Origin: Cymbomonas tetramitiformis | Lineage: Eukaryota; Chlorophyta; Pyramimonadophyceae; Pyramimonadales; Pyramimonadaceae | Reading direction: 5' to 3' | DNA: 64,000 bases | Assembly: GCA_001247695.2 (NCBI GenBank) | Contig: LGRX02029311.1 | Location: forward strand, 19,535-83,534 | The notes under the pieces: model-generated | What the model saw: the letters and a program-made list of their open reading frames with translations, nothing else | The model's database searches: none | What the model was told of the DNA's origin: nothing | Shown: positions 19,520 to 60,339 of the stretch, in pieces | Layout of the letters: every line of letters starts with the position of its first letter | Numbering within the stretch: the stretch's first letter is position 1 | Made by a program: the position numbers and the translations under genes

Positions 19520-20740
19520 ATGGCGATGACATCTGCATCGCCTGCTGCGAGCGACGCTGGCACATGGGCGGACTCGCGTGACGCCCGGCCGCGTTCCTCG
19601 GGAGGCGCACCTTCTTCACCTCCGAGTCCGCCACGGGCGCGTCAGCTGTCTCGGTCTCCTACGAGGCCTCCATCTCCGGCGGGGTCGGATTGGGATGCCG
19701 TGCGGATGGCCACCTCATCCGTCAGTGCGGTGGGCAGGTTTCTGACCGTGGCAGAGGTGCGCAGCTTGAGGGAACACCGCAACCTCACCGTCTTCATGGT
19801 GAAGTTTGCCGTGGCACATACGAACCGCTGCCGGGACCAGCGGATTGTGTATGAGCTGGGCGTGTGCAACCAGGAGCGGGGTCTCAGGATGCGGGAACAT
19901 CCGGGCATCACCAGCGCAGTCGCCAGGAAGCACGACAAGACAATCTCTTGCGGGCAGCTGGGCTGGCGCCTCCCTCTTGGGGGACAGACGGTGTCTGCCA
20001 ACCTGTTGGAGGCCATCATGTCCGCTTATGCTGATCTGTCGCATCGTGCCTCAGGACACACGCTCGACGGAGGCTATGCAAGGAACATCGAGTTCACGCT
20101 GTGCAAGTACGTGGAGCTTGGGTCGGCGCACGTGCTGCGCTGCAAGGCGCACCCGAACGCCACGCCAGTGCATTATATTTTCATGGATGATCAACGGTGT
20201 CTGCCTTGGCGGACGGAGTTCACAAACGAGTATCTTGGGCGGGACGACCGGAAGTTCACTCACGTACAGTGGGGTTACTCGGAAACAGCCGTGCCCTGGT
20301 TGCAGACGGCCCTGAGCCACTTGGAGGCGCGCCTTCTCTCGCCGCAGCCGCCCGCCCGTGAGGCTCGTCTGGCCGTGAGGTCAGAGCACGTGGATACACG
20401 CTGGTCAAGGAATGTGGACGAGGTTCGCGACCCCCCTGCGCGTCATCAATGGCCGCCTCCTCCCAGGACGTTCGAGCATCAGCCGACCGTAGGTGGTGCT
20501 GCACATGCGCCTGCCCCTTCCGTTGACCGCCATGGGGCTGCTACCCATGTCGTCCACGCGCCGCGGACGTCCAGGATCCCAGCCGGCCACGGCCCACGCC
20601 GTCCTCCTTCTCCAGCTCTCTCCAATTGGAGTGAGGCTACGCAAGCGTTCCAGCATTATACAGACGAACGGCGTGAGGCGCAGCGCGGGCAAGCGCATTT
20701 TCAAGAGGGCTCCCCGGGTACAGCGGGCGGGCAGCCCTGA
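19520..20740 (+). CDS. gag: Gag-like region of element D
   Basis: About 406 residues from a Met at 19520: a Ser/Pro/Arg-rich N-terminus, a folded-looking middle (about residues 60-290) and a Pro/His/Arg-rich basic tail. No CCHC knuckle is present. It is called gag only by position, directly upstream of pol, and by its disordered-globular-basic layout. The stop TGA (20738-20740) overlaps an ATG at 20740 in the -1 frame, which suits either frameshifting or reinitiation. The frame is open upstream into an unrelated exon. Confidence 0.45.
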   Translation: MAMTSASPAASDAGTWADSRDARPRSSGGAPSSPPSPPRARQLSRSPTRPPSPAGSDWDAVRMATSSVSAVGRFLTVAEVRSLREHRNLTVFMVKFAVAHTNRCRDQRIVYELGVCNQERGLRMREHPGITSAVARKHDKTISCGQLGWRLPLGGQTVSANLLEAIMSAYADLSHRASGHTLDGGYARNIEFTLCKYVELGSAHVLRCKAHPNATPVHYIFMDDQRCLPWRTEFTNEYLGRDDRKFTHVQWGYSETAVPWLQTALSHLEARLLSPQPPAREARLAVRSEHVDTRWSRNVDEVRDPPARHQWPPPPRTFEHQPTVGGAAHAPAPSVDRHGAATHVVHAPRTSRIPAGHGPRRPPSPALSNWSEATQAFQHYTDERREAQRGQAHFQEGSPGTAGGQP

Positions 20741-23700
20741 TGCACAACCGACGCTGTGGCCGTGGGCTGCCTGCACGGGCGGTCCACCTACGGCCAGGAG
20801 TCCTGCGGGCGTGTGTTTCGCTTGCAGGCAGTGCAGTGATTTGGTGGTGGTTGGTACGAGGTACCGTGCCCATGGTCGCCGTCTGGGCGATGTGGGAGGC
20901 GATATCGTGGCACTTGACATGGTGCCCTTTTCGCATTTGGTGGGGGCGCTTTGTGGCCTCGTTTTTGAACTGGCTGCCGGTGTGGTGGTCGACTGCTCGA
21001 CGTCGTCCCCGTCGTGCATGCTATGACGTTTGGGTCTTATGGGCCCTCGCCTGCGTTTGGTACGTTGGGTTGCTTGTCCTGCGCACCACGGGCATTTATG
21101 CTGGAGTGCACCGTGTTCATGCCGAAGGTTGGACGGTCGTGCCCCTACGCGCTGTGGTCATTTTCTTGACGTGCTGGTCACGGTGTGCGGCCGCCCTCCT
21201 GATCGCCGTCCTTGCTTGGCTTTGGGTCTGTGCCAGCGTCTTCGCGGAGGATGTGGCGTGCCACGCCCTTCATGTCCCGGACGACCCTTTGGACGCACAT
21301 CACGTTCGACGTGGCCGTGGATGGGGCGTTCCGTCTTTACGTTGGTCTCAAGTTTTCCTGTTGGGCCGCGTGCGCCTGCCCGCTTTGCCGGCCAGGTTGA
21401 ACAAACCTCGCTTTGCAGCGCGCTGGGCGCAGCTTCGGCGCAACCTTCGGCTTCATTGCATCGCGCAGGCCGCTTATGTCGCGCTGGTCCTTGCAATCGT
21501 GGTCTTCACCGCCGCTGGTGGGAGTACTCGCTTGGCGCACGGGGGGTGGAGAGTATGGGCGTGCTTCTTCGCTTCGAACTCGCCAGCAGCCGCAGTGCGC
21601 TTCAACAGAATTTTGCGATTTTTTCTGCTTTTGTGCGGGGTTTTGTGGGTCGCTGGCAAGCTGGCTGAGAGCGTGCCCATGCACAATGCCATGTCGCCCG
21701 CGCGCAGTGCTTGGGGTGCATCCCCCTGCACTTCATGGGAGGCCCAGCAGTCCTCGAGGCAATGGGAGCCGGGCTGGGAAGCCAACATCGCGGAGCAGGA
21801 TGAGGTCTTGCCGTACACCGTGCTGGACGAGCTCCAACCCCTAGGTGACACGACAGTGACCAAGGACGAGGCAGCGTGGCTCGACACTGAGCTCAATGCC
21901 ACGTTTGGAGGACATCCTGACTTCAAGGAGGAGCACTGGGAGGAGATGCGAAATGTTCTTCGCAGGTGCAAGGCCACGTTTGCCAACAGTCCTCATGATC
22001 TTACAGGCTACAAGGGCAAGGCGGAGCACAACACGTTCTCTATTCCTTTTATAGACGAATCCAAGGCCGCTTACCAGAGGCCCAGGAAGTACAGCCCGGG
22101 CGAGCAGGAAATCATCGATATCCACTGCAAGGAACTCCTGGAGTATGGCTTCATAGAGCCGGCAGCCAAGCACTGCAGGCATGCGAGCAACGTCGTCGTG
22201 GCTGGCAAGAAGGATCATGAGACCGGCCTTTGGACCCAGACGAGGTTCTGCGTGGACCTCAGGGGTGTCAACCGGCACTCCCTCAAGGACAACACGCTTC
22301 CACACCGACCAGAAGAGCTCTACCAGAAGGTCGCGAAGGCCAAGTTCAAGACTACGCTGGACGCCACCAAAGCCTTCCACCAGATTCCCATGGCCACGGA
22401 AGAGGACAGAAGCAAGACGGCGTTCTGGTGGAAGAATCAGCTCTACCAGTACACCTCGATGCCGTTTGGGGCAGCTGGGGCAACATCTGCGTTCGTGAGG
22501 ATCATGGATTACGAGTTGCGCCATTTGCAGCACTGTACTGTGGCGTACGTAGATGACGTGGTGGTCTACACAGACTGCACGCCCGAGCAGCATCTGAAGG
22601 ACGTTGAGGACGTGTTACGTACCTTGGGGGACGCAGGCATAAGATTGCACGCAGGCAAGAGCACTTTCGGTGCAGCCACGGTGGACTTTCTGGGTTACCG
22701 CATTGGGCACAATTCCATTGGCGCGCAGGAGGCGAAGTGCAAGGCCATCCAGGAGCTTCCGAGGCCGCAAGACAAGACGGGGCTTCGCTCCATCCTGGGC
22801 ATGATGAACTATTACAAGGGCTTAGTGGGTGAGCCAGGAGGGCCAAATTACTCAGAGATGGCCCGCCCTCTCAACGACTTGCTCAAGAAAGAGATCACTG
22901 ACATCAAGGGAGCTTGGGGGAAGGATCAAGACCGAGCACTCCAGGAGCTGAAGGACGCGCTCTGCTCTGGGAGATGTCTGAGGCCCATCGACTACGACAG
23001 ACCCCTCATATTGTATACTGATTGGAGCACCTACGGCATTGGCGCAGTGCTGGGCCAGAAGGATGACGATGGCAAGGAGTACATCTGCATGGCGATCAGC
23101 CGATCTTTGAGTAAGACAGAGAGGCAGTACGCCAGCTTCAAGGGTGAGATGCTTGCAGTGGTGTGGGCAGTGCGCACATTGAGACAGTACCTGCACGGAG
23201 TACACTTCACGCTGGTGACTGACCACTCACCGCTCACCACGTTGATGGAGAAGGCTGATCTTCAGGGTCAGCACTTACGTTGGGCAATCAGCTTGCAGGA
23301 GTTCGACTTCACGGTGCAGTATCGCCCAGGAGCCAAGAACAGCAACGCTGACGTGCCCTCTCGCTACCCGTTGCCAACCACGACAGACGAGACTAGGGCA
23401 AGGCACGAGAGAGAAAAGGTGACTGCGCTTCACGCGGGCGTGGGGGAAGTGCGCGGTAAGGATTTCCGTGATCACCTGTGCTTCATGTTGGCTGGGGAGG
23501 TTTCCCCAGGGGACGAGGTCACGCCAGAGGTCCAAGTTGCCAACTATTGCAAGAGGGCTGCCGTGGAGCAGTTGGGCACGGGGCCAGCGCATCGCTTGTT
23601 CGATTTGCACCACCAGGAAGAGTTGGAGTGCAACCAGGTGGCGATGTTCGACACTGATCTTCCCGAATTGGTGATCGACTCTGGAAGGTTGGCGAGGGCA

Positions 23701-24402
23701 GCGTGGAAAGCGCTGTGCCTGACACGACCTACGCGAGGCACGCATGGTGAAGGGAGTCCCGCGGTGTACAGCAACGAGTACTTCGAAGGCGAACGTATCC
23801 TGAAGCCCGAGAAGGTGGACACCAGGGTGTTGAGCAAGCAGTTCTTCTCGCAAGCTCGGGAGGAAGGTGTAGTATGCTACGAGCCATGTGGAGGCCTTTG
23901 TGCTGGTCTGGAGATGCTGCTTCGCAGTGGCATGAAGGTGGACCAATACCTATATCAAGACATATCACCAAGCAGCCAGGCAGTGGCCAGAGCCAGATGC
24001 ACTGCGCTGCTACGACGATACCCTGACCTCATCTCGCCCAGCGCGGTAGAATTTGGGGCTCTACCCCAAGATCTGCGCGACACGACAAGCGCTGACTTCA
24101 TACGGGCAGGAGCTCTTCGAGGACGTCAGTGGGTCATGGTGTGTGGGTTCCCATGCCAGGACCTTTCCCCTGCTGGGACGCTTACGGGCCTGGACGGCAG
24201 GCATAGCAAATTGTTTTACGAAGTGGTTCGGCTTCTATCCACGCTGCAACAGTTACAGCAGCAGAAGCCCCCAGGATACATCCTGGAGAACGTGTCCCCA
24301 TTGTCGCACAGGCCCGGGACCAAGATCAGGGACGAGGTGTTCCCGTACATCCCGTACAGCCAGTTTGTGCTGGTCTGGAGATGCTGCTTCGCAGTGGCAT
24401 GA
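20740..24402 (+). CDS. pol: Pol of element D, part 1: hydrophobic region, RT, RNase H and DNMT3-like methyltransferase (5' part)
   Basis: 1220 residues. Residues 1-310 contain about five hydrophobic, Trp-rich stretches (near 27-60, 95-120, 135-165, 245-270 and 290-310). No D-S/T-G protease motif is visible. RT spans about 430-700 with CVDLRGVN, TTLDATKAFHQIP and the YVDD box (about 602). RNase H begins at LYTDWSTYGIG (about 757) and ends near NSNADVPSRYP. A cytosine-C5 methyltransferase follows: motif I as CYEPCGGLCAGLE (about 1046), motif IV as GFPCQDLSPAG (about 1137, catalytic Cys) and motif VI as ILENVSPL (about 1184). The residues around PCQ resemble the DNMT3/DRM group. The frame ends artificially at a 454-bp tandem duplication; the remaining motifs lie beyond it. 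Confidence 0.85.
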   Translation: MHNRRCGRGLPARAVHLRPGVLRACVSLAGSAVIWWWLVRGTVPMVAVWAMWEAISWHLTWCPFRIWWGRFVASFLNWLPVWWSTARRRPRRACYDVWVLWALACVWYVGLLVLRTTGIYAGVHRVHAEGWTVVPLRAVVIFLTCWSRCAAALLIAVLAWLWVCASVFAEDVACHALHVPDDPLDAHHVRRGRGWGVPSLRWSQVFLLGRVRLPALPARLNKPRFAARWAQLRRNLRLHCIAQAAYVALVLAIVVFTAAGGSTRLAHGGWRVWACFFASNSPAAAVRFNRILRFFLLLCGVLWVAGKLAESVPMHNAMSPARSAWGASPCTSWEAQQSSRQWEPGWEANIAEQDEVLPYTVLDELQPLGDTTVTKDEAAWLDTELNATFGGHPDFKEEHWEEMRNVLRRCKATFANSPHDLTGYKGKAEHNTFSIPFIDESKAAYQRPRKYSPGEQEIIDIHCKELLEYGFIEPAAKHCRHASNVVVAGKKDHETGLWTQTRFCVDLRGVNRHSLKDNTLPHRPEELYQKVAKAKFKTTLDATKAFHQIPMATEEDRSKTAFWWKNQLYQYTSMPFGAAGATSAFVRIMDYELRHLQHCTVAYVDDVVVYTDCTPEQHLKDVEDVLRTLGDAGIRLHAGKSTFGAATVDFLGYRIGHNSIGAQEAKCKAIQELPRPQDKTGLRSILGMMNYYKGLVGEPGGPNYSEMARPLNDLLKKEITDIKGAWGKDQDRALQELKDALCSGRCLRPIDYDRPLILYTDWSTYGIGAVLGQKDDDGKEYICMAISRSLSKTERQYASFKGEMLAVVWAVRTLRQYLHGVHFTLVTDHSPLTTLMEKADLQGQHLRWAISLQEFDFTVQYRPGAKNSNADVPSRYPLPTTTDETRARHEREKVTALHAGVGEVRGKDFRDHLCFMLAGEVSPGDEVTPEVQVANYCKRAAVEQLGTGPAHRLFDLHHQEELECNQVAMFDTDLPELVIDSGRLARAAWKALCLTRPTRGTHGEGSPAVYSNEYFEGERILKPEKVDTRVLSKQFFSQAREEGVVCYEPCGGLCAGLEMLLRSGMKVDQYLYQDISPSSQAVARARCTALLRRYPDLISPSAVEFGALPQDLRDTTSADFIRAGALRGRQWVMVCGFPCQDLSPAGTLTGLDGRHSKLFYEVVRLLSTLQQLQQQKPPGYILENVSPLSHRPGTKIRDEVFPYIPYSQFVLVWRCCFAVA

Positions 24403-24816
24403 AGGTGGACCAATACCTATATCAAGACATATCACCAAGCAGCCAGGCAGTGGCCAGAGCCAGATGCACTGCGCTGCTACGACGATACCCTGACCTCATC
24501 TCGCCCAGCGCGGTAGAATTTGGGGCTCTACCCCAAGATCTGCGCGACACGACAAGCGCTGACTTCATACGGGCAGGAGCTCTTCGAGGACGTCAGTGGG
24601 TCATGGTGTGTGGGTTCCCATGCCAGGACCTTTCCCCTGCTGGGACGCTTACGGGCCTGGACGGCAGGCATAGCAAATTGTTTTACGAAGTGGTTCGGCT
24701 TCTATCCACGCTGCAACAGTTACAGCAGCAGAAGCCCCCAGGACACATCCTGGAGAACGTGTCCCCATTGTCGCACAGGCCGGGACCAAGATCAGGGACG
24801 AGGTGTTCCCGTACAT
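23897..24816 (+). repeat. Near-perfect tandem duplication of about 454 bp in the methyltransferase region of D
   Basis: 23897-24350 recurs at 24364-24816 with about two differences (one substitution in CCAGGAYACATCC and one missing C in GGCCCGGG). The start offset is 467 and the end offset 466. It covers motifs I to VI. The repeat shifts the frame; removing 466 nt restores continuity with the downstream frame. Confidence 0.95.
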
Positions 24817-26866
24817 TGCCAGCGTCATTGGCCGACCAGTGTCCTTTGATGCAGCACAAGCAGGCGCTTACGCACATCGATTGCGAGCGTATTGGAGCAA
24901 CTTGTTCCAGGGCCACCAGTTCCGTTCCGTTATGAGTAAGGTGGCAAGACCAGAAGGACGAGTTGTGTCGTCGATCCTGTCCAAGGGCTGGCAGCCCAGG
25001 CCAGTGATAAGAACGGACCGCGCGCCTCACTACGTGGTGAACGTGGTGGGAGAACCATTGAGGGCTCTGCCCACCATCATGGCGACGCAAGGGTCAAGAG
25101 CATTCAGGAAAGCAAGGATGGGCACTGTGGTGCGCAACCAGAATGATGAAGACATCGAGGAGGAGTCCAGAGAGGTGAACCTCGACGAGAAGGCGCTAGC
25201 CATGGGCTACAGCGCAAGCGAACTACGCATGGCCGATGGCCTGAACGACACAGAACTGGCGAGCATTCTGGGCCTGGCCATGGATCGCAGGGCTATGGAA
25301 CTGTTGATGGCGGTCGCAGAAGCAAGCAGGAAGGGGCTTCCTCACAGCGAGGAGTCCTTGGAGGCGGAGAATTCCCCAGGACAGCCTATAGCTGTAGACA
25401 ACAACTGGGCGGACCACGCGAGGTCGGACCCTCAGCAGAGGCAAGCTTTGCTGGCGGAATGGGTTGAGAATTCAAAGGCATATACTCAGCAGGTGGCGAA
25501 GACCATGAGTCACCGTGACTGGGAGGAGAAGCTGCAGATAATGTGCTCGCAAGGGCAAAAGGGTGCAGAAGGAATTGGGACTCAGCGACAGAAGGCGGGG
25601 ACCAAGAAGAAGAAGAAGAACGAGTGGCAGCTCCACACCATCGAGCAGTATCGCCGGAGGCACGAGAGCCACTTCGTGAAGGAGGGCGCAGCTCCAGCAG
25701 TGCGTGTCGACGTGCCTGCTTGGAGTCCGCCTGTCAAAGATGCAGAGATGAGACTGCCCAGATTGGCGTGCACCACCAGGCTCGCGGACTTGATGGCCAG
25801 CGTGGCCGAGCAGCAGGCTGATCGCGAGAAGTATCGGGATGTTCATGATGACGCATGGTGCCTCAGATGGTTGAGGTCCAATGGTGGCGTGAAGTTACCG
25901 GAAGACGAAGTCCATCGCGTGAGGAGGCGCGCAGCACGACATCGATGGGATGAAGCTACGGACGAGATCTACATGATCACGTTGTCAGGCAAGGAAGTGA
26001 GGATACCCAAGCCTGCTGACCGTCTTGCGTTGGTCAAAGAATATCATTCCAGAACGGGCCATTGGGGTATAAGGCGCACACAGCATCTTCTGTGGCAGCG
26101 TCATTGGTGGGCCGATCTGAGGAAGGACGTTGAGGCCGTGGTGACCCAATGTGAAACCTGCCAGCGTGTGAAGACTCATTACGCAAGGGAAGAGGCGTGC
26201 CTGTCGCCCAGGCTTGAGATCGTGTCATTCATGTACCGGTGGTCGTTGGACCTAGCGTGGCCTTCAAGGAGAGAGACCAAGGCGGGCAACAACAGGGTGC
26301 TCATCATGACCGAGCACTACACCAGGTTCATAGTCTGCGTGCCCATTCCCGACAAGGAGGCGAGGACCATTGCAGCGGCATTTCGCAGCCATGTCCTGGC
26401 GGTATTCGGGGCGCCAGCAGAGTGCCTGGTGGATGGAGGCAAGGAGTTCGAGGGCGAATTCAAGCAGTTATGCAGAGACTGCCTGATAGACCGCCGAGTC
26501 ACATCGCCAGACTCACCGGAAGGCAATGGCCTCACGGAGCGGGTGGTGCGTACGATGAAGTTCTGTTTCAAGAAGATCGCCTTGGAGAAGGGCCTCGACT
26601 ATGAGTGGGACGAGCAGCTCTGGGCACTCGTGCTGAGCTATAATGCAGCGCGCCAAGAGTCCACAGGAGTGGCACCGTTCACTTTGTTATTTGCCCAAGA
26701 GGCAGTGGTGCCACCGGACTTGAAGCGAGCGCCCAGCATAGATTTCAGTCCCGAGATCGAGGATGACAAGGACGCACGGGTCAAGGAGCTACCTGCTAAG
26801 GGCAGAGGTGGTGAAGCGACTGATGGTGCACGCTGGTTGCAGTCTGGAGGTGGCACAACATCGTGA
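24803..26866 (+). CDS. pol: Pol of element D, part 2: methyltransferase C-terminus and integrase
   Basis: It opens with the remainder of the DNMT3-like domain: a DAAQAGAYAHRLRAYWSNLF segment matching the family's motif VIII region, then RALPTIMATQGSRAFR, like the end of DNMT3 catalytic domains. A charged linker with a Lys run (about 265-275) follows. Integrase then shows an HHCC zinc module (HSRTGHWG to CETC, about 414-455) and the catalytic triad D (SLDLAW, about 481), D (VDGGKEFEG, about 543) and E (GLTERVVR, about 578). The stop at 26866 is due to an extra C (GCTACCTGC) in the first copy of a duplicated block; the second copy lacks it and stays open. Integrase acts in the nucleus to join cDNA to host DNA. 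Confidence 0.85.
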   Translation: MFPYIASVIGRPVSFDAAQAGAYAHRLRAYWSNLFQGHQFRSVMSKVARPEGRVVSSILSKGWQPRPVIRTDRAPHYVVNVVGEPLRALPTIMATQGSRAFRKARMGTVVRNQNDEDIEEESREVNLDEKALAMGYSASELRMADGLNDTELASILGLAMDRRAMELLMAVAEASRKGLPHSEESLEAENSPGQPIAVDNNWADHARSDPQQRQALLAEWVENSKAYTQQVAKTMSHRDWEEKLQIMCSQGQKGAEGIGTQRQKAGTKKKKKNEWQLHTIEQYRRRHESHFVKEGAAPAVRVDVPAWSPPVKDAEMRLPRLACTTRLADLMASVAEQQADREKYRDVHDDAWCLRWLRSNGGVKLPEDEVHRVRRRAARHRWDEATDEIYMITLSGKEVRIPKPADRLALVKEYHSRTGHWGIRRTQHLLWQRHWWADLRKDVEAVVTQCETCQRVKTHYAREEACLSPRLEIVSFMYRWSLDLAWPSRRETKAGNNRVLIMTEHYTRFIVCVPIPDKEARTIAAAFRSHVLAVFGAPAECLVDGGKEFEGEFKQLCRDCLIDRRVTSPDSPEGNGLTERVVRTMKFCFKKIALEKGLDYEWDEQLWALVLSYNAARQESTGVAPFTLLFAQEAVVPPDLKRAPSIDFSPEIEDDKDARVKELPAKGRGGEATDGARWLQSGGGTTS

Positions 26867-28387
26867 CACTCTACATTATGAAGGAAGAAGGGGTGGTGGG
26901 ATTGAGCCCAAACCACACCAGTTTAAGGTGGGTGACTTTGTCTACATTAGACAGAAGCCTCGCAGCGGCATGGAAGTCGCGACCAAGTCCGCCATTCTGA
27001 AGTTGGTCAAAATACAGCGGGATGGTGTGGTGGTGCTTGAGGACGCCACCAAGTTAAGAGAGAAAAGCACTGTGCAGAGCATCGCGCCATGTCACCTACA
27101 GGTGAAGGACCAGTATGATTGCAGTGCAGCCGTTCCCAGCAAGCACCTGGCATGCGAAGTGTGCAGGAGGACTGATGGAGAGGCAGAGATGTTGCTATGT
27201 GACGCATGCAACAGGGGTTACCACTTGTGGTGTCTTAACCCAGCATTGGATGGAGTACCAGAAGGTGAGTGGCTATGTCCCAGGTGCTCAGGCACGGGAA
27301 TTCAAGCTGCCAACGCCGAGGTGCAGACCCAAGAAGATGAGAGCTCTGGAGTCCTGGAGGACAGACTGGGCATAAAGGAGCAGCAGCTTAGTGAGAAGTA
27401 TACAAGAAACACTGCAAAGTTGGACAGCAATGCAAGTGTACGGATAAGCGGGTTTGTGAGTGCAGTCTCTGTAAGAAGATCTGCTGAAGCACAACGCTTC
27501 CTCACTTTTGTACCATACGTCTCCCATCATCTTAGATGGTACCGCCATTGGGTTGTGAACCCGAGACGTAGGTTGAACGACCAGCATTGTGGAAACGACT
27601 AGTTCGTTCATGCTGCGCATGCGAGTTCGATAATGCAGCGCGCCAAGAGTCCACAGGAGTGGCACCGTTCACTTTGTTATTTGCCCAAGAGGCAGTGGTG
27701 CCACCGGACTTGAAGCGAGCGCCCAGCATAGATTTCAGTCCCGAGATCGAGGATGACAAGGACGCACGGGTCAAGGAGCTACTGCTAAGGGCAGAGGTGG
27801 TGAAGCGACTGATGGTGCACGCTGGTTGCAGTCTGGAGGTGGCACAACATCGTGACACTCTACATTATGAAGGAAGAAGGGGTGGTGGGATTGAGCCCAA
27901 ACCACACCAGTTTAAGGTGGGTGACTTTGTCTACATTAGACAGAAGCCTCGCAGCGGCATGGAAGTCGCGACCAAGTCCGCCATTCTGAAGTTGGTCAAA
28001 ATACAGCGGGATGGTGTGGTGGTGCTTGAGGACGCCACCAAGTTAAGAGAGAAAAGCACTGTGCAGAGCATCGCGCCATGTCACCTACAGGTGAAGGACC
28101 AGTATGATTGCAGTGCAGCCGTTCCCAGCAAGCACCTGGCATGCGAAGTGTGCAGGAGGACTGATGGAGAGGCAGAGATGTTGCTATGTGACGCATGCAA
28201 CAGGGGTTACCACTTGTGGTGTCTTAACCCAGCATTGGATGGAGTACCAGAAGGTGAGTGGCTATGTCCCAGGTGCTCAGGCACGGGAATTCAAGCTGCC
28301 AACGCCGAGGTGCAGACCCAAGAAGATGAGAGCTCTGGAGTCCTGGAGGACAGACTGGGCATAAAGGAGCAGCAGCTTAGTGAGAAG
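26641..28387 (+). repeat. Direct duplication of about 758 bp separated by 232 bp in integrase/PHD of D
   Basis: 26641-27398 and 27631-28387 are identical except for one extra C in the first copy. The start offset is exactly 990 nt, a multiple of three. The 232-bp spacer (27399-27630) has no similarity to the flanks and contains stops. The first copy also encodes the PHD finger. It is either a real segmental duplication or an assembly join of two alleles. Confidence 0.95.
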
Positions 28388-41794: not shown

Positions 41795-41796
41795 TA

Positions 41797-47329: not shown

Positions 47330-47690
47330 TTTTCAGACGTGTTCCCAAAGTGACCAAAAACCGAACGATCGGCGATCGAACGGTTTTTGGTCACTTTGGG
47401 AGTGAGATCGTGAGTTTAGGCTTGGTGACAACACGCGAAACCACTGAGTATTTTCAGACGTGTTCCCAAAGTGACCAAAAACCGAACGATCGGCGATCGA
47501 ACGGTTTTTGGTCACTTTGGGAGTAAGATCGCGAGTTTAGGCTTGGTGACAACACGCGAGACGACACTGAGTATTTTCAGACGCGTTCCCAAAGTGACCA
47601 AAAACCGAACGATCGGCGATCGAACGGTTTTTGGTCACTTTGGGAGTGAGATCGTGAGTTTCTAAGGCTTGGTGACAACACGCGAGACAA
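47330..47690. repeat. Three tandem units of about 120 bp, each with a long perfect hairpin
   Basis: Each unit contains CCCAAAGTGACCAAAAACCG followed by a short CGATCG-rich loop and its exact reverse complement (at about 47343-47399, 47464-47520 and 47586-47642). Spacers read GAGATCGTGAGTTTAGGCTTGG and AACACGCGA. Arms are at least 20 bp without mismatch. Confidence 0.93.
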
Positions 47691-48454: not shown

Positions 48455-48570
48455 CGTATCTGGTTCAACGAAAGCCACGTATCTGGTTCAACGAAAGCCC
48501 TGTATCTAGTTCAATGAAAGCCCCGTACCTGGTTCAACGAAAGCCCCGTATCTGGTTCAATGAAAGCCCC
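48455..48570. repeat. Tandem repeat of about 21 bp in the Mutator-like element
   Basis: Units resembling CGTATCTGGTTCAACGAAAG are repeated about five times with single-base variants. Non-coding. Confidence 0.85.
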
Positions 48571-48969
48571 GTAATCTTGCTTGCGCAAACAAAGTTGTTC
48601 CTAACACTTATTATGTAGTCAACTGTACAAGGGAACCGTGGAAAGCAAGGGCGACGCACCTTTCATTTTTGATGGAGAATCTTTTACCCTGTCCTCTTTC
48701 TTGAATAGAGGACAATAAAATGCATACCATCAGTGTTCAACAGTACAACGATACCCGCCGTTGTCGCAAGAAAGGCACACCCTGCCGTACTTTTTCGGAG
48801 GCTTCCTCATGTTTGCAATAACCAAGTGAACCGAGGTGGGGTGGGGGCAAAATAATTCAAACGGTGATATTAGACGCATGTTCATGTGTCACAAACTTAT
48901 TCCCCAAAAAAAGATTCGATTTCCTATTCCCCATTATGCACTTTTCTATTCCCTAATCATTATGCTACC

Positions 48970-51296: not shown

Positions 51297-51908
51297 TCAA
51301 TGCTGACCCCAGGGGCCCAAATGGTGGTCATCAAAGACCTCAAACTGGGCCCAATCCTCATTAGGGTCACTGGTGCAATATGAGGGGTGAGTCAGGGTGT
51401 AGTTCTCCAGGAACTGATTAAGCTGTTGGAAGGAGGGAGATGGCACAACTGAGAAATCCCACTGAGAGTGCTCTGGGGAGGGTGAGCTGTCTGGCCGTGG
51501 CCGAGGTGTGTCAGTGCGGATCGGGGTGTCTGCCATGAACTGCTTCCACTTAGTAGTGGTCTCCGAGGTGTCCTCCTGAGATTCAGGGATAGGAGGGAAC
51601 TGGAAATCCGGTGTGACGGCACAGGCCTGCACTGTGGACGGGACCGGGGGCTGCATGTGTGTGTCTGAGGTAGCAGCCAGCCGGTCAGTGTCCACCAATG
51701 CAGGCAGGGTGCCCGCTGTAGCCCGTGTAGTTGCCCTATCGGCAGTGGGCTGAGCAGGCACCGTACCGTCAGTGTCGGATACTGGAGGAGGAGGAGGAGG
51801 AGGAGGTGTGTGTTGGGGCGGATAGCCCTCGGTGTCTGACTCGGAGCCTGAGTCGGAGACATCGGCCCAGAGGCCAATACTCTCAAGCCCGGGGTACAGT
51901 ATGTACAC
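51297..51908 (-). CDS. Copia accessory linker, acidic Ser/Pro-rich part
   Basis: About 203 residues in the protease frame: a Ser/Asp/Glu-rich start (DVSDSGSESDTEG), a run of Pro, then Thr/Pro-rich sequence and an Asp/Glu/His-rich end stopping at TGA 51297. No domain is recognised. It lies between the gag-proximal ORF and protease. The preceding ORF joins it by a 1-nt frame change near 51.91 kb. Whether the TGA is read through, spliced out or a disabling mutation cannot be told. Confidence 0.5.
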   Translation of the reverse strand: MYILYPGLESIGLWADVSDSGSESDTEGYPPQHTPPPPPPPPVSDTDGTVPAQPTADRATTRATAGTLPALVDTDRLAATSDTHMQPPVPSTVQACAVTPDFQFPPIPESQEDTSETTTKWKQFMADTPIRTDTPRPRPDSSPSPEHSQWDFSVVPSPSFQQLNQFLENYTLTHPSYCTSDPNEDWAQFEVFDDHHLGPWGQH

Positions 51909-53158
51909 TCCAAGGGGGCTAGAGAGCTGTCAGAGGCACCGAGTGTAGGCGGTTGCCCGGAGGCCACTGTAGTGTCGGCCCCGAGAGCTGTGCTTAGAGA
52001 TGTAGGGGTGTCAGCGGTGGTTGCACCGTCAGTACAGACGGTGTGATCGGTGGGCGTGCCCACAAGCGCCTCATCGGCACCGTGTCCCAGGGGCGGTGTA
52101 GAGGCAGCTGCTGGCTCACAGAGTGTGGTGGGAGCTGTGGTGACACCACTGGAGGGCAAATGTGGTGTGTGGTTGGCCGGTGCCGTAGCACTGGCGGAGG
52201 CCGGCTGAGGTGAGGCTGTAGCCGGTGCCGTGGCACCACCGGAGGTCGGCTGAGGTGAGGCAGTAGCCGGTGCCGTGGCACCACCGGGGGCCGGCTGAGG
52301 TGAGGCAGTAGCCGGTGCCGTGGCACCACCGGAGGCTGGCTGTGTGGAGGCAGTAGCCGGTGCCGTGGCACCACCGGAGGCTGGCTGTGTGGAGGCATTG
52401 GCCGGTGCCGTGGCACTGGCATAGGCCGGCTGTGAGAAGGTGATAGCCGGCCGAGGTGACATATAGAATGTGTATGTCAGTGTTATGTGCAAAAGTGCGA
52501 GGAGCACAGCAACGTGGAAGGAGATCCAGTGCATGGCAATGGCTACTAGGGTGCGTGTGGCCGAGGGAGTGTTACAGCCAGGCTGTGGTGTGGCGGTGTG
52601 TACGGCAGCAATGTGAACTGGGTCCGTATGCGTGCCCTCCCAATGCATCCCCATCCCAGGCACTGCAATATGAATGCATGCAGTGTCAGGTGCAATTGTG
52701 GTGGCTGGGGGGATACCAATGGCCCGAGGCTCAGGCTGGTGGCAGTCGGGGGGTGGTGATGGTGGTGGGAGGGGAGCGGTGGAGGTGGGAGGGGTGGTGG
52801 CAGTGTCCGGAGTGTCCTCGGTGGCAGTGTCCAGAGTGTCCTCGGAGGCAGTGTCCAGAGTGTCCTCGGAGGCAGTGTCCAGAGTGTCCTCGGAGATGGT
52901 GGAGGCCACTGAGGTGCTGCCGGTCAAGAGGTCAGTCAGGTAGGGCACAGGGCACTGGGTGTTGCAGTCCACGGTGATGTCTGTCTGGACTGGGGCGGTG
53001 GCGGTGCTGTTGGCCGAAGCCAGTGATTCAGCTACCTGGTGCTGCCGCTGAAGCTTCTGCTGCTGCTGAATGGCCTTCTTCTGCTTCTCCTTGTCCCGCT
53101 TCCTCTGCCGCTTTGTCCTCTCCCAAGCCGGGTCCTCGTGGTCCGGGTCCTCTCTCAA
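51909..53158 (-). CDS. Copia accessory ORF, low complexity
   Basis: The ATG at 53158 overlaps the gag stop (ATGA). The N-terminus is highly charged with Lys/Arg and Gln (about residues 10-45), probably a coiled coil. Then come four copies of EDTLDTA, a hydrophobic stretch (VAVLLALLHITLTYTFYM) and tandem 15-residue ATAPATASxQPxxGG repeats (about 52.2-52.45 kb). The displayed frame continues to 51392, but sequence character passes to another frame near 51.91 kb. Function unknown; the hydrophobic segment could be a membrane anchor. Confidence 0.5.
52190..52450 (-). repeat. 45-bp coding minisatellite in the copia accessory ORF
   Basis: Units of about 45 bp containing GCCGGTGCCGTGGCACCACC on plus, five to six copies, encode ATAPATAS-type repeats. 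Confidence 0.85.
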
Positions 53159-55713
53159 GTCAGTAGCCGTGACGGTGTCAAAATATCTGAATGCAAAGAG
53201 GGCGGTGGGCTCCAGCTGGGGGAAGGTGAACTGGGTGTCGGGTGGAGAGGCGGAGGGGGAGAGGGAGCTGAAGGGATTGGGGGAGAAGTGGTTGGCCGAA
53301 GCCGAGGGGGTTGGGTGAGGTGAGGGGCCAGAGAACTGAGGGATCCAGGGCTTACTGGTGAGGGCGGGCCACTCAGTCTCATCATCCTCCTGGTCTGCCT
53401 GGAAGCTGACTGCCTGAGCTGGATGGTGAAACTCAGAGCGGCGGGGGGGCGGGGTGGCGGAGGGGGTGGCTGCTCTGAGCTGTGCAACCTCCTGCCTGAG
53501 AGCTGCCAGCTCGGATGCGGTGCTGGCTGATGCACTGTCAGTGGGGGTGAGGTGGGGGTGGCAGGGGTGCGGTGGGGGTGGCAGGGGTGCGGGTGTGGAG
53601 GGCGGGGGGCAGAGACATGGTTCACAGATGGAGGGGGGCCGGCCTTAACCCACATGTCGGCTCTCTCAGCCAGTGTGCAGGGGCAGCCCAACCTGGTGCC
53701 GAGGGAGTGGGTGACGGTCTTGTTGAACTTGTACTTGCAGGAGCGGCAGGGGTGGCCGATGGACTTGTCATTGGGGTCGGAGGGGGTGAACTTGAAGCGG
53801 TCCCAGGTGCCAGAGGGGGTGGAGTCCTTGTTGGTGGAGCCGGCGTGCTTGAGCTTGGCCGCTTTGTACATGGCCTTCTCGTGCTCAATGAAGGCAGCTC
53901 TGTTGCCGCCCCGTAGTGGTGAGCGGGGCCTGGATGGAGGTGGTGTGGTGGCCCGAGGGTGCGTACCCTTGCCACCTTTGCCCCCCTTGCCGCCCTTGCC
54001 GTTAGGGTGCTTCTCTCTCGGCTTGGTGGTGTCAGCCGAGCCCCGCCCTCCCTCACGGACTTCCCCCGTCATGGAGGCAGCTCGGGGGCGGGATGAAGAG
54101 CCAGGGAGCTGGGAATGGTGGGCAGAGCCCCGGGTGTACCACACATTACCGATGGCCTCAATGAACTTCTGAAGACCACCGGGGAAGCCAGAGGAGGTCA
54201 TGCGGTTGTTCTCCTCGTAGGTGCGGATGACATCGAAGTACAGGGGGATGTCAAAGAGGTGCTCGGCCGTGTCCTGGGAGGCCCGTAAGATGTCGATGAG
54301 GACCTCCTGCTCCTGCTGTCCAGAGAAGGCGGGGTGAAGCTGCCTGTGGCTGCCGATGAGGGTGGCGAAGGTGTTCAGCTTCAAGCCGGGGTCCTCGGAC
54401 TCAGAGATTCGGAGGGCCTTGGCCTTGGTGAGGTTGGAGTGGTCCGTGGAGGGGGGGTAGGTGATCAGGCGGCAGTGCACGTGCAGTAGAAGCAGTCTGC
54501 CGTCCACCTGAGCCTGGGGGGAGTCCTTCACAATTTGTGCCAACACAATCTGTGTGTTGGCACAAGTGGCCGCAAGCAGAAGTTGAGCTAGAAGTCCATT
54601 GGAGATACCGTCGTAGGGCTCGTCCTTCAGTCGGCGTTGAAGGTTAAGTAGTGCTGGGGCGTGTCCAGGTCGGGTGGCGGTGAGCACACGGGTCAGGGCC
54701 TCACAGAACTTCTTGAACACAATGTCGCCGCCCGCGGTGAGGAAGTTCAATTGGAGTTCACGTTGTTGTTGTCGCTCGTGAATGTCCGTGAGGGCATAAT
54801 AGGCGGTCTTCAACTGCTTCAGGAGCGGAGTGACGTCAGGAGTGGTGGAGCGGGTGTTGAAGGCGCTGGTGTTGTCGTCCATGATGTGCTTGATCTTGGT
54901 TGGAGGAAGTGGTTGCCCATCTCGATGTTGCAATGGCGTAACCTCTGGAATAGTCTCCAATTCCTTGGTGGCGTCGAACATCTTGTCCGAAGTAATTACG
55001 ACTGAAGATGGCGTCGAAGATGAAGTAGTTCTACTCGCAACAGTGCGAGCCAGAGAGGTGGCGTTGACGCATTCGTCGCGGACTTTGATTAAGTCGTCGA
55101 GGATGGTCTCGTTGAGTTGATTGACGTCGTTGAGTTCTTCCTTCGTGACGTAATTCTCGTGGATCTCGTCGGACTGAGCAGATGAGCGCTGAAATGCAGA
55201 TCCAAGTGAGGTAATGGTGGCAGGGTAGAAGTCTTCCAAAATTCTTTACGGCCCGTAAACTATATTTCCGCTGGCCCGCTTTCGGCCAAAACGGTCAAGG
55301 AAGAACAATGCCCGCCGCAGGCGCGAAATTTCGAAATTAAGTATGGGGGGTTGATAAAAAGTAGCATAAAATGCCTATATTTTTGGCCGAAGTTTGGCCG
55401 GCTCATATTTTTGTGCGGCCCGGGGGCGAAAGCCCCTTCGGCCCGGTTTCGGCCCGGAGCGAGCTTCTGCGGCCCCGGGCCGGCCCGCCACGGTAAGACT
55501 TCTACCCTGAATGGTGGTGGAGATCTCGTCCACTTTGGCGGTGACGGCATGGAGGTCTTGAAGAAGGGCGTTGATGGTGATGGAGATTTCTTCGTTTGTT
55601 GGAGATGGGGGAAGAGGTTGTCGTGAAGTAAATAATCGTCGTTGAGAACGTGGTTGAAGTTCTTGTGTTGGCGGTTGGGATCCCGGAGTTGTTGTTGGTG
55701 TGAACGTTGACAT
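53155..55713 (-). CDS. gag: Copia gag, interrupted by a GC-rich insert near its N-terminus
   Basis: The main part, 55239-53155 (694 residues), has an acidic helical N-terminus, a capsid-like middle (about residues 100-380, FKKFCEALTRVL, LLLLHVHCRLITY), a basic Gly/Lys-rich stretch, and a Cys module HPCRSCKYKF...GCPCTLAERADMW (about 510) in place of a standard CCHC knuckle. A Pro/Ser-rich tail follows. The apparent first exon or N-terminus lies at 55713-55505 in the same frame (MSTFTPTTTPGSQ to VDEISTTIQG). Between them, 55240-55500 is unrelated and contains stops. The call is by position and composition. Confidence 0.65.
55240..55500. mobile_element. GC-rich insert in copia gag with inverted ends
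   Basis: GGTAGAAGTCTT and AAGACTTCTACC occur in inverted orientation near the two edges (55488-55508 and 55224-55242). The interior has GGCCCGGGGGCGAAAGCCCC-type stems. Its class is unknown; no direct target duplication was found. Confidence 0.4.
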
Positions 55714-55763
55714 GGTAGACCTTCGGACCGTTGGTGGCGGTGAAGGCGACGATGTTGCGCAAG

Positions 55764-56152
55764 ACGTTCTCCTAGGGGTTGAGATGAAGATTTTCTCTAA
55801 GTTTTGTTAATTTTCAAAAAATTGGCCAGCGCTTCCGCGGTAAATGCTCGTAATTTACCTAAAATCTAAGGCGTCCCTCAAATTTTGGCAGAGCGATGTG
55901 ATAATTAACGGTCGTTTCAACATTGAAGTTAAATGAAAGGCCGAGAGGGCAATCGTAAAAGAATTCCCAATCATAAAAGGTTTCGGCGAGTTAAAATTGA
56001 AACCGGCCCGACCTGCGGAGGGTTAGTGCAAAAGCAAGTCGCAATTTTCAAACAATTTCGCTGACTGCCAGTTCGATGTGCTTTTGGCGGCTAATTTGAA
56101 ATTTGTTGTTTCATCAGAGATTGCAGTGGTGCGTTGTGGTATAACATAACCT
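55764..56152 (-). other. Copia 5' leader
   Basis: Non-coding sequence between the 5' LTR and the gag start. I could not recognise a standard tRNA primer-binding site next to the LTR; the adjacent minus-strand sequence is AGGTTATGTTATACCAC. Confidence 0.5.
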
Positions 56153-56528
56153 AATAGATAGTATGAAACACATATAGGGTAGAATATTCTATATATCCGT
56201 GTTTTAATACTATCGCTGTACGCATAAATATGAGGCTGAAAACGGTGATAAGTCTGTAAAGATATCACATATGAGAATTCTGAGAGTCTAAGTAGCTTAT
56301 GCTACGTGCGCTGTGTAAGTCTGTACGAGTACGGCTATGGTGATGCTCGAGTACTCTAACACGTGGCTCGCAGTCACTATCGCTGTGACTCGCGGTCTCT
56401 GTCGCTATGACTCGCGGTCTCTGTCGCTATGACTCGCGGTCTCGAGCCGAATAATAATGCAATCATCTGTCACATGCATCGAGGAATGTCATACAGGGGG
56501 CAATACGGTATATCTAGTCCCCCGTGAC
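56153..56528 (-). repeat. 5' LTR of copia element (376 bp)
   Basis: It matches the left LTR apart from one fewer 22-bp unit (three instead of four) and scattered single-base changes and indels. It should contain the promoter for the minus-strand transcript. Confidence 0.93.
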
Positions 56529-56533
56529 AGCAT
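56529..56533. repeat. Target-site duplication AGCAT, right copy
   Basis: Matches 42902-42906. After it the integrase reading frame of element C resumes (QYAVGDLVWIEAR). Confidence 0.9.
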
Positions 56534-56752
56534 CAGTACGCAGTGGGAGATCTGGTGTGGATCGAAGCTCGTCATCTGACGGAAAAGGTGATGGACCGTG
56601 CGCTGTGCCGAAAGCTCGGTAAGCGCTGGCATGGACCTGTAACCGTGGTGGAGTGCTTCTACAGCGATTTGCAGGCGGAGCTGGCAGAGGCGGACCGCGG
56701 GGCACCGGTGGCATATCGGTTGGCCCTACCGCCGCACTGGCGCGCATTCACG
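56534..56752 (+). CDS. pol: Integrase of element C, C-terminal part
   Basis: It resumes the frame cut at 42906: QYAVGDLVWIEARHL, LGKRWHGPVTVVE and AYRLALPPHW, the usual GPY/F-like integrase C-terminal module that binds DNA. Subtracting 13627 nt (42907-56533) keeps the frame. At 56752 it is cut again by a Mutator-like element just before the conserved RIHDVF...LKPY segment, which follows at 59159. The junction has two extra bases (CGCGC), so this join is not frame-perfect. Confidence 0.88.
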
Positions 56753-59158: not shown

Positions 59159-60339
59159 GCATTCACGACGTGTTCGCGCAGCACCGCCTGAAGCCGTACA
59201 TCTCCGGCAAGGATGAGTTTGCATCTCGAGCACAACTGCCCGTACCTGACCTGGTAATGGTAGATGGGCAAGCGGAAGCTCACGTGGACAAAATCCTGGC
59301 GTATCGTGTACGCATGGTCAAGGGTAAATCTGTGGAGGAATGGAAGGTACGCTGGACGGGCTACTCGGCAGCTCACGACCAGTGGCGCTCCAGAGACAAG
59401 ATGGACAGAGGCGGGGAAAATCAGCAGCTCAAGGAGTTCGAGGCACGACGATTAGGCTTGCAGGCGGACATGCTGAAGTCTACTGAGCATGACCGACGGC
59501 AACGTCAACAGCGACAGCCCGCCCACCTTGGCGTCACCTTATCCCAGCTAATGGAACACCCATGTGACGTTCCGGAAGTGGATTCTCCACCGGAAGACTT
59601 CTGTCTGCCGTGGGAGCGGGTGGAAACCTTGGGGAATGGAGAGCTAGTGGTGATCACCGACCTTGAAGAGCGGAAGACCCGGCCAGTGAGAATCTTGGTG
59701 TTGTTCAGCGGAACTGGATCGGTGGAAAGGGAGTTTGCCAAGTGCTTCCCGTCTGCCTCGGTGGTTACGCTCGACAACGACCCACGCTGGCAACCCAACC
59801 ATCTCGCATCAATAGAGGACTGGGACCCCACTCAGTATCCACCGGGATTCTTTGATGTCATCTGGGCCAGCCCTCCATGCACCCAGTACAGTCAGGCGCG
59901 CACTACGGGAGGTCCTCCTGATCTGGAAGGAGCAGACAAGAGTGTGAAATGCACCCTGGATGCTATCGAGTACTTGAAGCCCATGCACTGGTTTCTTGAA
60001 AACCCTGAGGGAAGATACCTAAATGCATTGCGGTTGCGGTCAGTGGTTCGTAAACTGCCACAGCCTCTTTTTTGCACCTACTGTAAGTATGGAGAGCGAT
60101 ATCGTAAGCCGACATGTATCTGGACTAGCTCACCTCCACCAACGCCATTGCTGGAATGTACCTCGTGGACACCTTGCGCATGTAAATGGGCCACCGGAGG
60201 GCACCCTGAGACTGCCCAGCTTGGACCATCGTCTTCACAGCAACCAGGGGCGCGAGATGCTCACGCCGTGTACCCCGTACCAGCTCCGTTACTGCGTCAT
60301 CTCTTCCACCATCTTCAATTCGAGGAGCTTGATACCTGA
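59159..60339 (+). CDS. pol: Chromodomain and C5-cytosine methyltransferase, C-terminus of pol of element C
   Basis: The last part of pol (displayed from an accidental ATG at 59146 in the Mutator-like end; residues below count from there). RIHDVFAQHRLKPY closes integrase. A chromodomain at about 45-103 shows VDKILAYRV, EEWKVRWTGY and DQW, with aromatic positions partly kept (W, Y, W); such domains bind methylated histone tails and guide integration. A cytosine-C5 methyltransferase follows at about 180-330: VLFSGTGSVEREF (motif I), VVTLDNDP (II), WASPPCTQYSQAR (IV, catalytic Cys), FLENPEG (VI, ENP instead of ENV), YGERYRKPTCIWTS (VIII-like). This small form resembles phage-type C5 methyltransferases. 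The frame ends at 60339 with no lesion visible. Confidence 0.85.

What the first reader, a model, noticed from the sequence alone, without database searches (positions are those of the whole stretch)
19520..60339. Two gypsy lineages each carry a C5-type plus an amino-type methyltransferase flanking a reader-tipped integrase, in opposite order
Element D reads RT-RNase H-[DNMT3-like C5]-integrase-PHD-[DPWAGTG/TSPWF amino-type]. Element C reads RT-RNase H-[Dam-like NPPY]-integrase-chromodomain-[PPC C5-type]. The motifs are visible. Captured cytosine methyltransferases in retrotransposons are known from charophytes and dinoflagellates, but a paired 5mC and N6/N4 set around an integrase with a histone reader is, as far as I know, not a described architecture. 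The mirror-image order suggests independent assembly under the same selection, perhaps self-methylation of cDNA with two marks and marking of the integration site.
Basis: partly seen in the sequence, partly recalled or inferred. Interest (0 to 1): 0.93.

Follow-up and report, generated by a model that had tools for sequence, protein, structure and literature searches.

The report
Jumping genes carrying paired methyltransferases
In a green alga, two separate families of jumping genes each carry two different methyltransferase-like enzymes built into the same long protein as their copying and integrating machinery, which suggests that they chemically mark their own DNA, or the DNA where they land.

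Summary
The window is from a Cymbomonas tetramitiformis-like genome. Element D encodes RT-RNase H > DNMT3-like C5 methyltransferase > integrase > PHD > methyltransferase-like domain AM. Element C encodes RT-RNase H > Dam-type methyltransferase > integrase > chromodomain > phage-type C5 methyltransferase. Both window copies are broken. Of genomic copies fetched for their long open frames, 6 of 6 D copies carry all domains in one 2411-2415-aa frame and 14 of 20 C copies carry all five in one frame; the other six C copies keep the order with a split or missing domain. All four methyltransferase domains show purifying selection (pN/pS 0.05-0.16; RT and integrase 0.04-0.08). Three of the four rest on profile matches. 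AM rests on motifs, sub-threshold profile hits and a low-confidence model; its substrate is unknown. Beyond the finding: a copia element here also carries a Dam-like domain, and retroelement Dam domains group apart from phage ones, so DIRS elements are a likely source. Methyltransferase-bearing retrotransposons are known; ten searches of an open-access library returned no paired layout. Self-marking of cDNA is my best guess but untested, and the CpG-decay test gave little support.

The parts
22117..23466 (+). Element D: reverse transcriptase and RNase H
   Evidence: Pfam RVT_1, RT_RNaseH; domain bounds
23827..24336 (+). Element D: N-terminal part of DNMT3-like C5 methyltransferase (motifs EPCGGLCAG, GFPCQDLS, LENVSPL)
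   Evidence: PF00145 37.5 bits; relative P0038 best matches PDB DNMT3C (30 bits) and DNMT3B
24333..24791 (+). Element D: second copy of the C5 N-terminal part made by a local tandem duplication (period 467)
   Evidence: the repeat finder D9, blastn
24794..25048 (+). Element D: C-terminal part of the C5 methyltransferase (HRLRAYWSN)
   Evidence: joined to the N part in one frame in L112-L117
25964..26773 (+). Element D: integrase (H2C2 zinc binding and DDE core)
   Evidence: Pfam Integrase_H2C2; rve 32.5 bits at a cut-off of 32.6
27123..27317 (+). Element D: PHD finger, first copy (990-base tandem duplication)
   Evidence: Pfam PHD 49.9 bits
28112..28306 (+). Element D: PHD finger, second copy
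   Evidence: Pfam PHD 48.6 bits
28562..29296 (+). Element D: AM, second methyltransferase-like domain (DPWAGTG ... NNDWN ... TSPWF ... GPIGRRC)
   Evidence: No Pfam/NCBIfam hit for the window domain; motifs conserved in relatives; low-confidence model; pN/pS 0.049
38785..39954 (+). Element C: reverse transcriptase and RNase H (aspartyl protease upstream in the same frame)
   Evidence: Pfam
41075..41554 (+). Element C: Dam-type DNA N6-adenine methyltransferase (VDACCD, NPPY)
   Evidence: PF05869 48.9 bits, TIGR01712 39.1 (below its cut-off of 97.05), phrog_111 62.8
41974..42873 (+). Element C: integrase, interrupted in its C-terminal tail by the copia insertion
   Evidence: Pfam Integrase_H2C2; rve below cut-off
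56529..56752 (+). Element C: continuation of the integrase tail after the copia insertion
   Evidence: translation; 97% to L089, L097 and L105
59128..59487 (+). Element C: chromodomain region (element sequence resumes at about 59158)
   Evidence: Pfam Chromo 29.8 bits
59608..60336 (+). Element C: phage-type C5 cytosine methyltransferase (FSGTGS, SPPCTQYS, ENP, YCKYG)
   Evidence: phrog_757 58.6 bits; PF00145 18.3 bits, below cut-off; motifs
61063..61640 (+). Element C: 3' end of the element (...GGTACA)
   Evidence: similarity between most of the fetched copies that reach this far stops here
42907..56528 (-). Element E: copia-type retrotransposon nested in C, flanked by AGCAT on both sides
   Evidence: terminal repeats; flanks and frames
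50307..50726 (-). Element E: Dam-like domain between the Pol_BBD region and the integrase (NPPF)
   Evidence: PF05869 25.8 bits, below the 28.1 cut-off; TIGR01712 22.7; falls with retroelement Dam on a long branch; 150 scored genomic matches at 96-100% identity
1..117 (-). Element A: start of a Dam domain at the window edge; the rest lies left of the window (L111)
703..1878 (-). Element A: reverse transcriptase and RNase H, relative of C (about 75% DNA identity)

Best explanation
Both elements are Ty3/gypsy-type retrotransposons whose Pol polyprotein includes two methyltransferase domains besides RT, RNase H and integrase. SHOWN: domain order, one open frame in many copies, conserved motifs, purifying selection on all four domains close to that on RT and integrase. 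INFERRED: after translation (and protease processing, at least in C, which has an aspartyl protease; none was found in D's frames) the methyltransferases travel with RT and integrase in the particle or pre-integration complex. They methylate the new double-stranded cDNA, or the DNA at the landing site, with two marks (5mC plus, in C, N6-methyladenine; in D an unknown second mark), while the PHD or chromodomain docks the complex on chromatin. The benefit would be that the new copy carries host-like or protective marks when it integrates. INFERRED origin: C's Dam from a DIRS-type element with the same RT-RNase H-Dam order; C's C5 from a phage-like enzyme; D's C5 from a DNMT3-like gene (the last two rest on best matches, not trees).
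For: One-frame polyproteins: C 14 of 20 fetched copies, D 6 of 6 fetched copies. A diverged gypsy relative (A, left of the window; 62-78% aa identity in Dam, IN, chromo and C5) keeps the order Dam-IN-chromo-C5, with a stop between Dam and IN, and its neighbour A' keeps RT to C5 in one frame. pN/pS: C Dam 0.074, C C5 0.113, RT-RH 0.078, IN 0.057; D C5 0.082 and 0.161, AM 0.049, RT-RH 0.036, IN 0.041. Motifs among database relatives: C5 SPPC 102 of 109, ENP 103 of 103, strict motif I 75 of 107; AM motif I 14 of 15, SPWF 8 of 8; Dam VDACCD-type 11 of 11. Dam trees: retroelement Dam apart from viral-contig Dam, 100/98 and 97/98. A DIRS-like element with RT-RNase H-Dam in one frame and a tyrosine-recombinase-like frame (named by eye) lies in the same genome (L120). 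Precedent: de Mendoza et al. 2018 (PMC5890265; abstract, parts 1-2 and passages read) report that retrotransposon DNMTs can methylate CG de novo.
Against: No activity or methylation data. C copies show no clear excess of C/T change at CpG (C>T 0.095 vs 0.090, G>A 0.128 vs 0.106; normalised rates); D shows at most a modest excess. AM may not be a DNA enzyme, or not a methyltransferase. Dam motif IV was intact in only 9 of 13 aligned relatives, some of them fragmentary gene models. The precedent paper also says that a DNMT is not needed for retrotransposition in those genomes. Copies used for pN/pS were picked for open frames, and the C copies differ by only about 1%.
Confidence: 0.5

Rival explanations
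1. The methyltransferases act mainly on other DNA: they modify host chromatin, or act against DNA viruses, in a way that helps host and element together (antiviral defence).
For: Morozov et al. 2019 (PMC6338049, passages read) propose this for retrotransposon Dam/Dcm domains; Cymbomonas carries endogenous giant viruses and polinton-like viruses (PMC10675990, passages).
Against: Placement inside Pol next to integrase in two element families, with selection like that on RT and IN, points to a role in the element's own cycle.
Confidence: 0.12
2. Methylation serves silencing or copy-number control of the element's own insertions, with the reader domains aiming new copies at already silent chromatin.
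For: Chromodomain and PHD are histone readers; an amino-methyltransferase fused to a chromodomain writes 4mC at transposons in bdelloid rotifers (PMC8885841, passages).
Against: Thousands of first-look candidates suggest weak self-limitation; no strong CpG decay in young copies.
Confidence: 0.18
3. AM in D is a class I methyltransferase of another substrate (histone, other protein or RNA), or no methyltransferase at all; then only C pairs two DNA-methyltransferase domains.
For: No significant sequence match for the window domain; motif IV reads SPWF instead of the recalled (D/N/S)PP(Y/F/W); the weak Pfam hits of its relative P0036 lie below cut-offs and its matches cover the motif I side only; Foldseek TM-scores are 0.20-0.30 and VIA rows include Dot1L and some acetyltransferases at similar Z; it sits beside a PHD finger.
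Against: P0036 matches MethyltransfD12 (18.4 bits), N6_N4_Mtase (17.2) and phrog_799 DNA methyltransferase (28.1 bits); the Foldseek rows shown are methyltransferases or their homologues.
Confidence: 0.4
4. The arrangement is an assembly or gene-model artefact, or chance adjacency of nested insertions.
For: The window copies are broken and nested; several database gene models are oddly fused (P0039, P0069, P0073).
Against: Uninterrupted frames with all domains in the same order on separate contigs, and low pN/pS in those frames.
Confidence: 0.01

Closest known systems
KnitGypsy-Dnmt3 (Klebsormidium nitens; de Mendoza et al. 2018, PMC5890265, parts 1-2 and passages read)
   Same: LTR Gypsy element with a Dnmt3-related methyltransferase inside the Pol polyprotein, under purifying selection.
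   Different: The passages I read mention no second methyltransferase, PHD or chromodomain; the domain order in the figure was not visible to me.
SymbioDIRS-Dnmt3 and SymbioLINE-Dnmt (PMC5890265)
   Same: Retrotransposons that encode C5 methyltransferases (in Pol for DIRS, in an upstream frame for LINE); two DIRS architectures with different domain order acquired independently.
   Different: DIRS and LINE classes; one methyltransferase each in what I read; no DDE integrase.
DIRS retrotransposons with Dam-type N6-adenine methyltransferase (mentioned in PMC5890265 and PMC6338049)
   Same: RT-RNase H-Dam order in L120, and the Dam domains fall with the gypsy Dam.
   Different: C has a DDE integrase, chromodomain and C5 methyltransferase.
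Chromoviruses and other reader-tipped gypsy elements (Ectocarpus, PMC12477816; Chlamyvir-related in Cymbomonas, PMC10675990; passages read)
   Same: Integrase with a C-terminal histone reader.
   Different: No methyltransferase in the gypsy elements in the passages read; readers named there are chromodomain and Tudor, not PHD.
High-copy scaffolds in Burns et al. 2015 (PMC5741210, passages)
   Same: [quoted passage not shown] possibly this family.
   Different: Not assembled into an element in the passages read; no Dam, no architecture.
Orchid Ty3/Gypsy elements with an m6A RNA demethylase domain (PMC9289625, search listing and start of abstract only)
   Same: Gypsy element with a captured nucleic-acid methylation enzyme.
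   Different: An eraser of RNA marks, not paired writers.

Membership tests
Ty3/Gypsy LTR retrotransposon (elements C and D) | Pol order RT-RNase H before a DDE integrase | tested here: met
   (rve below cut-off, Integrase_H2C2 above)
Ty3/Gypsy LTR retrotransposon (elements C and D) | Paired long terminal repeats | tested here: inconclusive
   C's 3' end found but no matching 5' repeat in the window; the fetched stretches may not reach the 5' end; D has only a 208-bp repeat at 29417/30148
Chromovirus (element C) | Chromodomain C-terminal to the integrase | tested here: met
   Pfam Chromo; 20 of 20 fetched copies
Chromovirus (element C) | RT within the chromovirus clade | not tested
   no RT tree with reference elements was built
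KnitGypsy-Dnmt3 type (element D) | Dnmt3-related methyltransferase in Pol of a gypsy element | tested here: met
   DNMT3 relation by best match, no tree
KnitGypsy-Dnmt3 type (element D) | DIRS-like arrangement of terminal repeats | tested here: inconclusive
   208-bp repeat behind D could be part of a split repeat, but the 5' part was not found
DIRS element (considered for C because of Dam) | Tyrosine recombinase instead of DDE integrase | tested here: not met
   C has Integrase_H2C2 and an rve match
PF05869 Dam (element C domain) | Profile score over cut-off and motif IV (N/D)PP(Y/F) | tested here: met
   48.9 bits vs 28.1; NPPY
PF05869 Dam (copia E domain) | Profile score over cut-off | tested here: not met
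   25.8 vs 28.1 bits; NPPF present; falls with retroelement Dam on a long branch
C5 cytosine methyltransferase (element C domain) | Motifs I, IV (PPC) and VI and a profile match | tested here: met
   phrog_757 58.6 bits; motifs; Pfam PF00145 alone is below cut-off
DNA amino-methyltransferase (AM of element D) | Motif I DPFxGxG and motif IV (D/N/S)PP(Y/F/W) (recalled), profile match | tested here: inconclusive
   DPWAGTG present; SPWF deviates; no significant profile match for the window domain
Catalytic activity of any of the four methyltransferase domains | Methyl transfer to DNA | not testable with these tools
   needs bench work

The most novel reading that the evidence does not exclude
Two gypsy families in one alga have independently built a dual-mark writer onto a histone-reading integrase, so that each new insertion arrives with two DNA marks and is placed by a chromatin reader. 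With the Dam-bearing copia and DIRS elements, retrotransposons in perhaps thousands of copies may be a major source of both 5mC and 6mA in this genome.
Probability: 0.4. Interest if true: 0.93.

Novelty: new variant of a known kind. Interest (0 to 1): 0.82.

Why it matters
It shows in-frame, selected pairs of methyltransferase-type domains in retrotransposon polyproteins, assembled in two element families from different enzyme families, and a Dam lineage shared by DIRS-type, gypsy and copia elements. It makes the question of why retroelements carry DNA methyltransferases directly testable: Cymbomonas is grown in culture and has been sequenced by nanopore (PMC10675990), and the copies are numerous, recent and often intact, so that 5mC and 6mA could be read over them and over their junctions.

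Tried and rejected

Methylation footprint. The pairwise counts (CpG 1.1-2.5 times other sites in D) are inflated by TpG abundance and were replaced. The pN/pS values for D RT and AM (0.60, 0.79) came from misregistered alignments and were replaced. The A-versus-C values were mostly saturated and not used. The C values (which included the window copy) were redone with codon alignment, without the window copy.

Order exceptions among database gene models: P0039 shows AM before IN and P0073 shows C5 before Dam. P0039 reads like a fused gene model by eye; P0073 could be that or head-to-tail copies. Neither was checked in DNA.

Element B (9719-13441) has no methyltransferase match; whether its downstream part was lost or interrupted was not worked out.
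Full report
WHERE IT IS. Best database hits of the window's proteins are 90-97% identical to Cymbomonas tetramitiformis (CYMTET) proteins (P0001, P0017, P0045, P0046), and the window lies at G000:C19992:19535-83534 of an unnamed 851.7-Mb genome in 25,745 contigs. Cymbomonas is a phago-mixotrophic prasinophyte green alga; its updated assembly was reported as 68.3% interspersed repeats (PMC10675990, passages).

THE WINDOW. It is a nest of retrotransposons. D lies on the + strand (domains 22117-29296). C lies on the + strand from the protease/RT frame at 37765 to its 3' end at 61640. C is split by the copia element E (minus strand, 42907-56528, AGCAT on both sides) and by a second insert between about 56.75 and 59.16 kb. 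Element A (minus strand, left edge) is a relative of C with about 75% DNA identity in RT. B (9719-13441) is a third gypsy relative without a visible methyltransferase.

DOMAINS OF D. RT and RNase H; a C5 methyltransferase (PF00145, 37.5 bits) whose relative P0038 finds DNMT3C (30 bits) and then DNMT3B first among solved structures; integrase; PHD finger; then AM. In the window copy the C5 domain and the integrase-tail/PHD region are each duplicated in tandem with periods of 467 and 990 bases and near-perfect identity, and the series is spread over several frames. Recent rearrangement and assembly error are both possible. No protease was found in D's frames.

DOMAINS OF C. Aspartyl protease, RT, RNase H; Dam (PF05869, 48.9 bits); integrase; chromodomain; a small C5 methyltransferase that matches phage family phrog_757 (58.6 bits) better than Pfam PF00145 (18.3 bits, below cut-off). 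The profile of 29 relatives finds DNMT2-type tRNA methyltransferases first in the PDB (34.3 bits). Both C5 domains also share hits to phrog_363 and phrog_116, as C5 enzymes would. Among relatives found in the database, many of them free-standing, SPPC is kept in 102 of 109, ENP in 103 of 103, a strict motif I in 75 of 107 and the YC.Y motif in 87 of 96.

COPIES. The Dam profile gave 7257 first-look candidates in the genome; 150 were scored and all 150 exceed the cut-off. Twenty-five of the 150 lie in frames of 2000 aa or more; I fetched 20 of the 25. In 20 of 20 the order is RT-RNase H, Dam, integrase, chromodomain; C5 follows in 19. Fourteen of 20 hold all five in one frame. L096 and L104 have a split C5, L106 shows none, and L101, L103 and L107 have a split integrase. 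The AM domain gave 3302 first-look candidates; 150 were scored at 96-100% identity, 5 of them with an internal stop. Of nine frames of 2400 aa or more I fetched six, and all six hold RT-RNase H, C5, integrase, PHD and AM in one frame of 2411-2415 aa. The copia Dam-like domain gave 5801 first-look candidates; 150 were scored at 96-100% identity, 24 of them in frames of 1461-1463 aa. L119 shows Dam and integrase in one frame that runs on into the sequence that opens the window's RT frame. Selection on the copia domain was not measured. First-look counts are candidates, not verified copies.

DIVERGED RELATIVES. Left of the window (L111), A continues as Dam (85 of 136 identical to C), then, after a stop, integrase (234 of 299), chromodomain (72 of 106) and C5 (152 of 225) in one frame; behind it a second copy A' holds RT, Dam, integrase, chromodomain and the start of C5 in one frame cut by the end of the stretch. 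Among 28 database proteins of the AM search, 16 have integrase before AM, one has the reverse (P0039), nine have AM without an integrase match and two (P0043, P0044) have integrase without an AM match; six have both the D-type C5 and AM. In the C family three of 163 proteins carry both Dam and C5 matches (P0013, P0073, P0129). Unnamed proteins from ENA, JGI and NCBI sources (P0047, P0050, P0052, P0055, P0065-P0067) carry integrase, chromodomain and C5; P0065-P0067 are 35-38% identical, so this half of C probably occurs in other organisms.

SELECTION. Codon-aligned pN/pS. D, seven copies including the window: RT-RNase H 0.036, C5 N part 0.082, C5 C part 0.161, integrase 0.041, PHD 0.110, AM 0.049. 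C, 17-20 fetched copies: RT-RNase H 0.078, Dam 0.074, integrase 0.057, chromodomain 0.087, C5 0.113. The copies were picked for open frames, which does not by itself lower amino-acid change relative to silent change. The methyltransferase domains are held about as tightly as the core enzymes, the C5 domains somewhat less.

ORIGIN OF DAM. In a tree of 76 Dam domains, gypsy (8), DIRS-type (2) and copia (1) rows fall together apart from 65 viral-contig rows (100/98). A smaller tree (45 rows, 26 of them viral-contig rows) with five DIRS-like Dam domains of this genome, A and A' gives the same split (97/98), gypsy Dam as one group (97/95), and the DIRS-type rows next to it with weaker support (82/73, including L082). 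Limits: 104 and 108 columns, midpoint root, bootstrap not settled, long-branch warnings in both, and the copia row is a very long branch, so its place is unsure. The label DIRS for P0015 and P0016 (RT plus Dam) is mine by recall; of the genomic rows only L084 was checked in context, as L120: RT-RNase H-Dam in one frame, then a frame that by eye reads as a tyrosine recombinase. The gypsy element therefore probably took RT-adjacent Dam from a DIRS-type element.

HOW IT LIKELY WORKS. Translation gives one long Pol; in C a protease is present. The methyltransferases sit on either side of the integrase, so they could be delivered with it. The simplest account is that they mark the cDNA or the landing site, with the PHD or chromodomain choosing chromatin. 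De Mendoza et al. (PMC5890265) report that retrotransposon DNMTs methylate CG de novo and propose self-methylation of retrotranscribed DNA. Against a strong CpG mark: in C copies the majority-polarised C-to-T rate is 0.095 at CpG and 0.090 elsewhere, G-to-A 0.128 and 0.106. Normalised C/T difference rates per context are 0.0136 at CpG against 0.0108-0.0189 elsewhere in C, and 0.0513 against 0.0318-0.0468 (L112-L115) and 0.0112 against 0.0072-0.0099 (L116-L117) in D. A weak CpG excess in D is possible; the test cannot see N6-methyladenine or targets other than CpG.

WHAT IS KNOWN. Dam in DIRS elements and C5 in gypsy, DIRS and LINE elements are in print (PMC5890265; PMC6338049, passages). Reader-tipped gypsy integrases are in print (PMC12477816, passages), and that paper mentions a DNA-transposon protein with a ParB-like domain and an N4/N6 methyltransferase. 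Burns et al. 2015 noted very-high-coverage Cymbomonas scaffolds with chromodomain, RNase H and cytosine methyltransferase similarity (PMC5741210, passages). My ten searches of an open-access library listed no paper that I recognised as describing two different methyltransferases in one retrotransposon polyprotein or Dam in a copia polyprotein; for PHD-tipped gypsy integrases, 'PHD finger' had no occurrence in the 15 papers listed of 69. I read passages of six papers, not all listed ones, and subscription papers are mostly missing from the library. PMC6338049 speaks broadly of Dam- and Dcm-encoding Ty3/Gypsy and DIRS elements, so Dam in gypsy may have been seen before.

VERDICT. Function is inferred.

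Noticed in passing
50307-50726 (-), element E: A copia element also carries a Dam-like domain between the Pol_BBD region and the integrase; 150 scored genomic matches at 96-100% identity, 24 in frames of 1461-1463 aa.
   Followed up: partly
L120 (G000:C23775:18300-22300): DIRS-like element with RT-RNase H-Dam in one frame and a tyrosine-recombinase-like frame (by eye), in the same genome.
   Followed up: partly
23897-24830 and 26640-28619: Near-exact local tandem duplications (467 and 990 bases) inside D; recent rearrangement or assembly error.
   Followed up: no
about 41627-41791: Short insert between Dam and integrase of C with inverted ends (TACAGTAA...TTACTGTA), MITE-like by eye, absent from the three copies shown.
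   Followed up: partly
36507-37800, 40100-40950, 60345-61062: 21-bp repeat arrays in C, the second inside the Pol frame between RNase H and Dam, where copies differ in length.
   Followed up: no
about 56.75-59.16 kb and 47759-48382: The second insert in C shares a 73% identical stretch, inverted, with an insert inside the copia element E.
   Followed up: no
61640/61641: C's 3' end abuts the interior of another copia copy (61641-63912), so C probably inserted into that copia.
   Followed up: partly
P0069: Database protein with a truncated C-type C5 followed by an N6_N4_Mtase (PF01555) part; gene-model fusion or a further methyltransferase swap.
   Followed up: no
L082 (G000:C527:30758-31147): A further Dam lineage, neither the C type nor clearly DIRS, in a 328-aa frame.
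   Followed up: no
29417-29624 and 30148-30355: 208-bp repeat (99%) just behind D's last frame, possibly part of a split terminal repeat.
   Followed up: no
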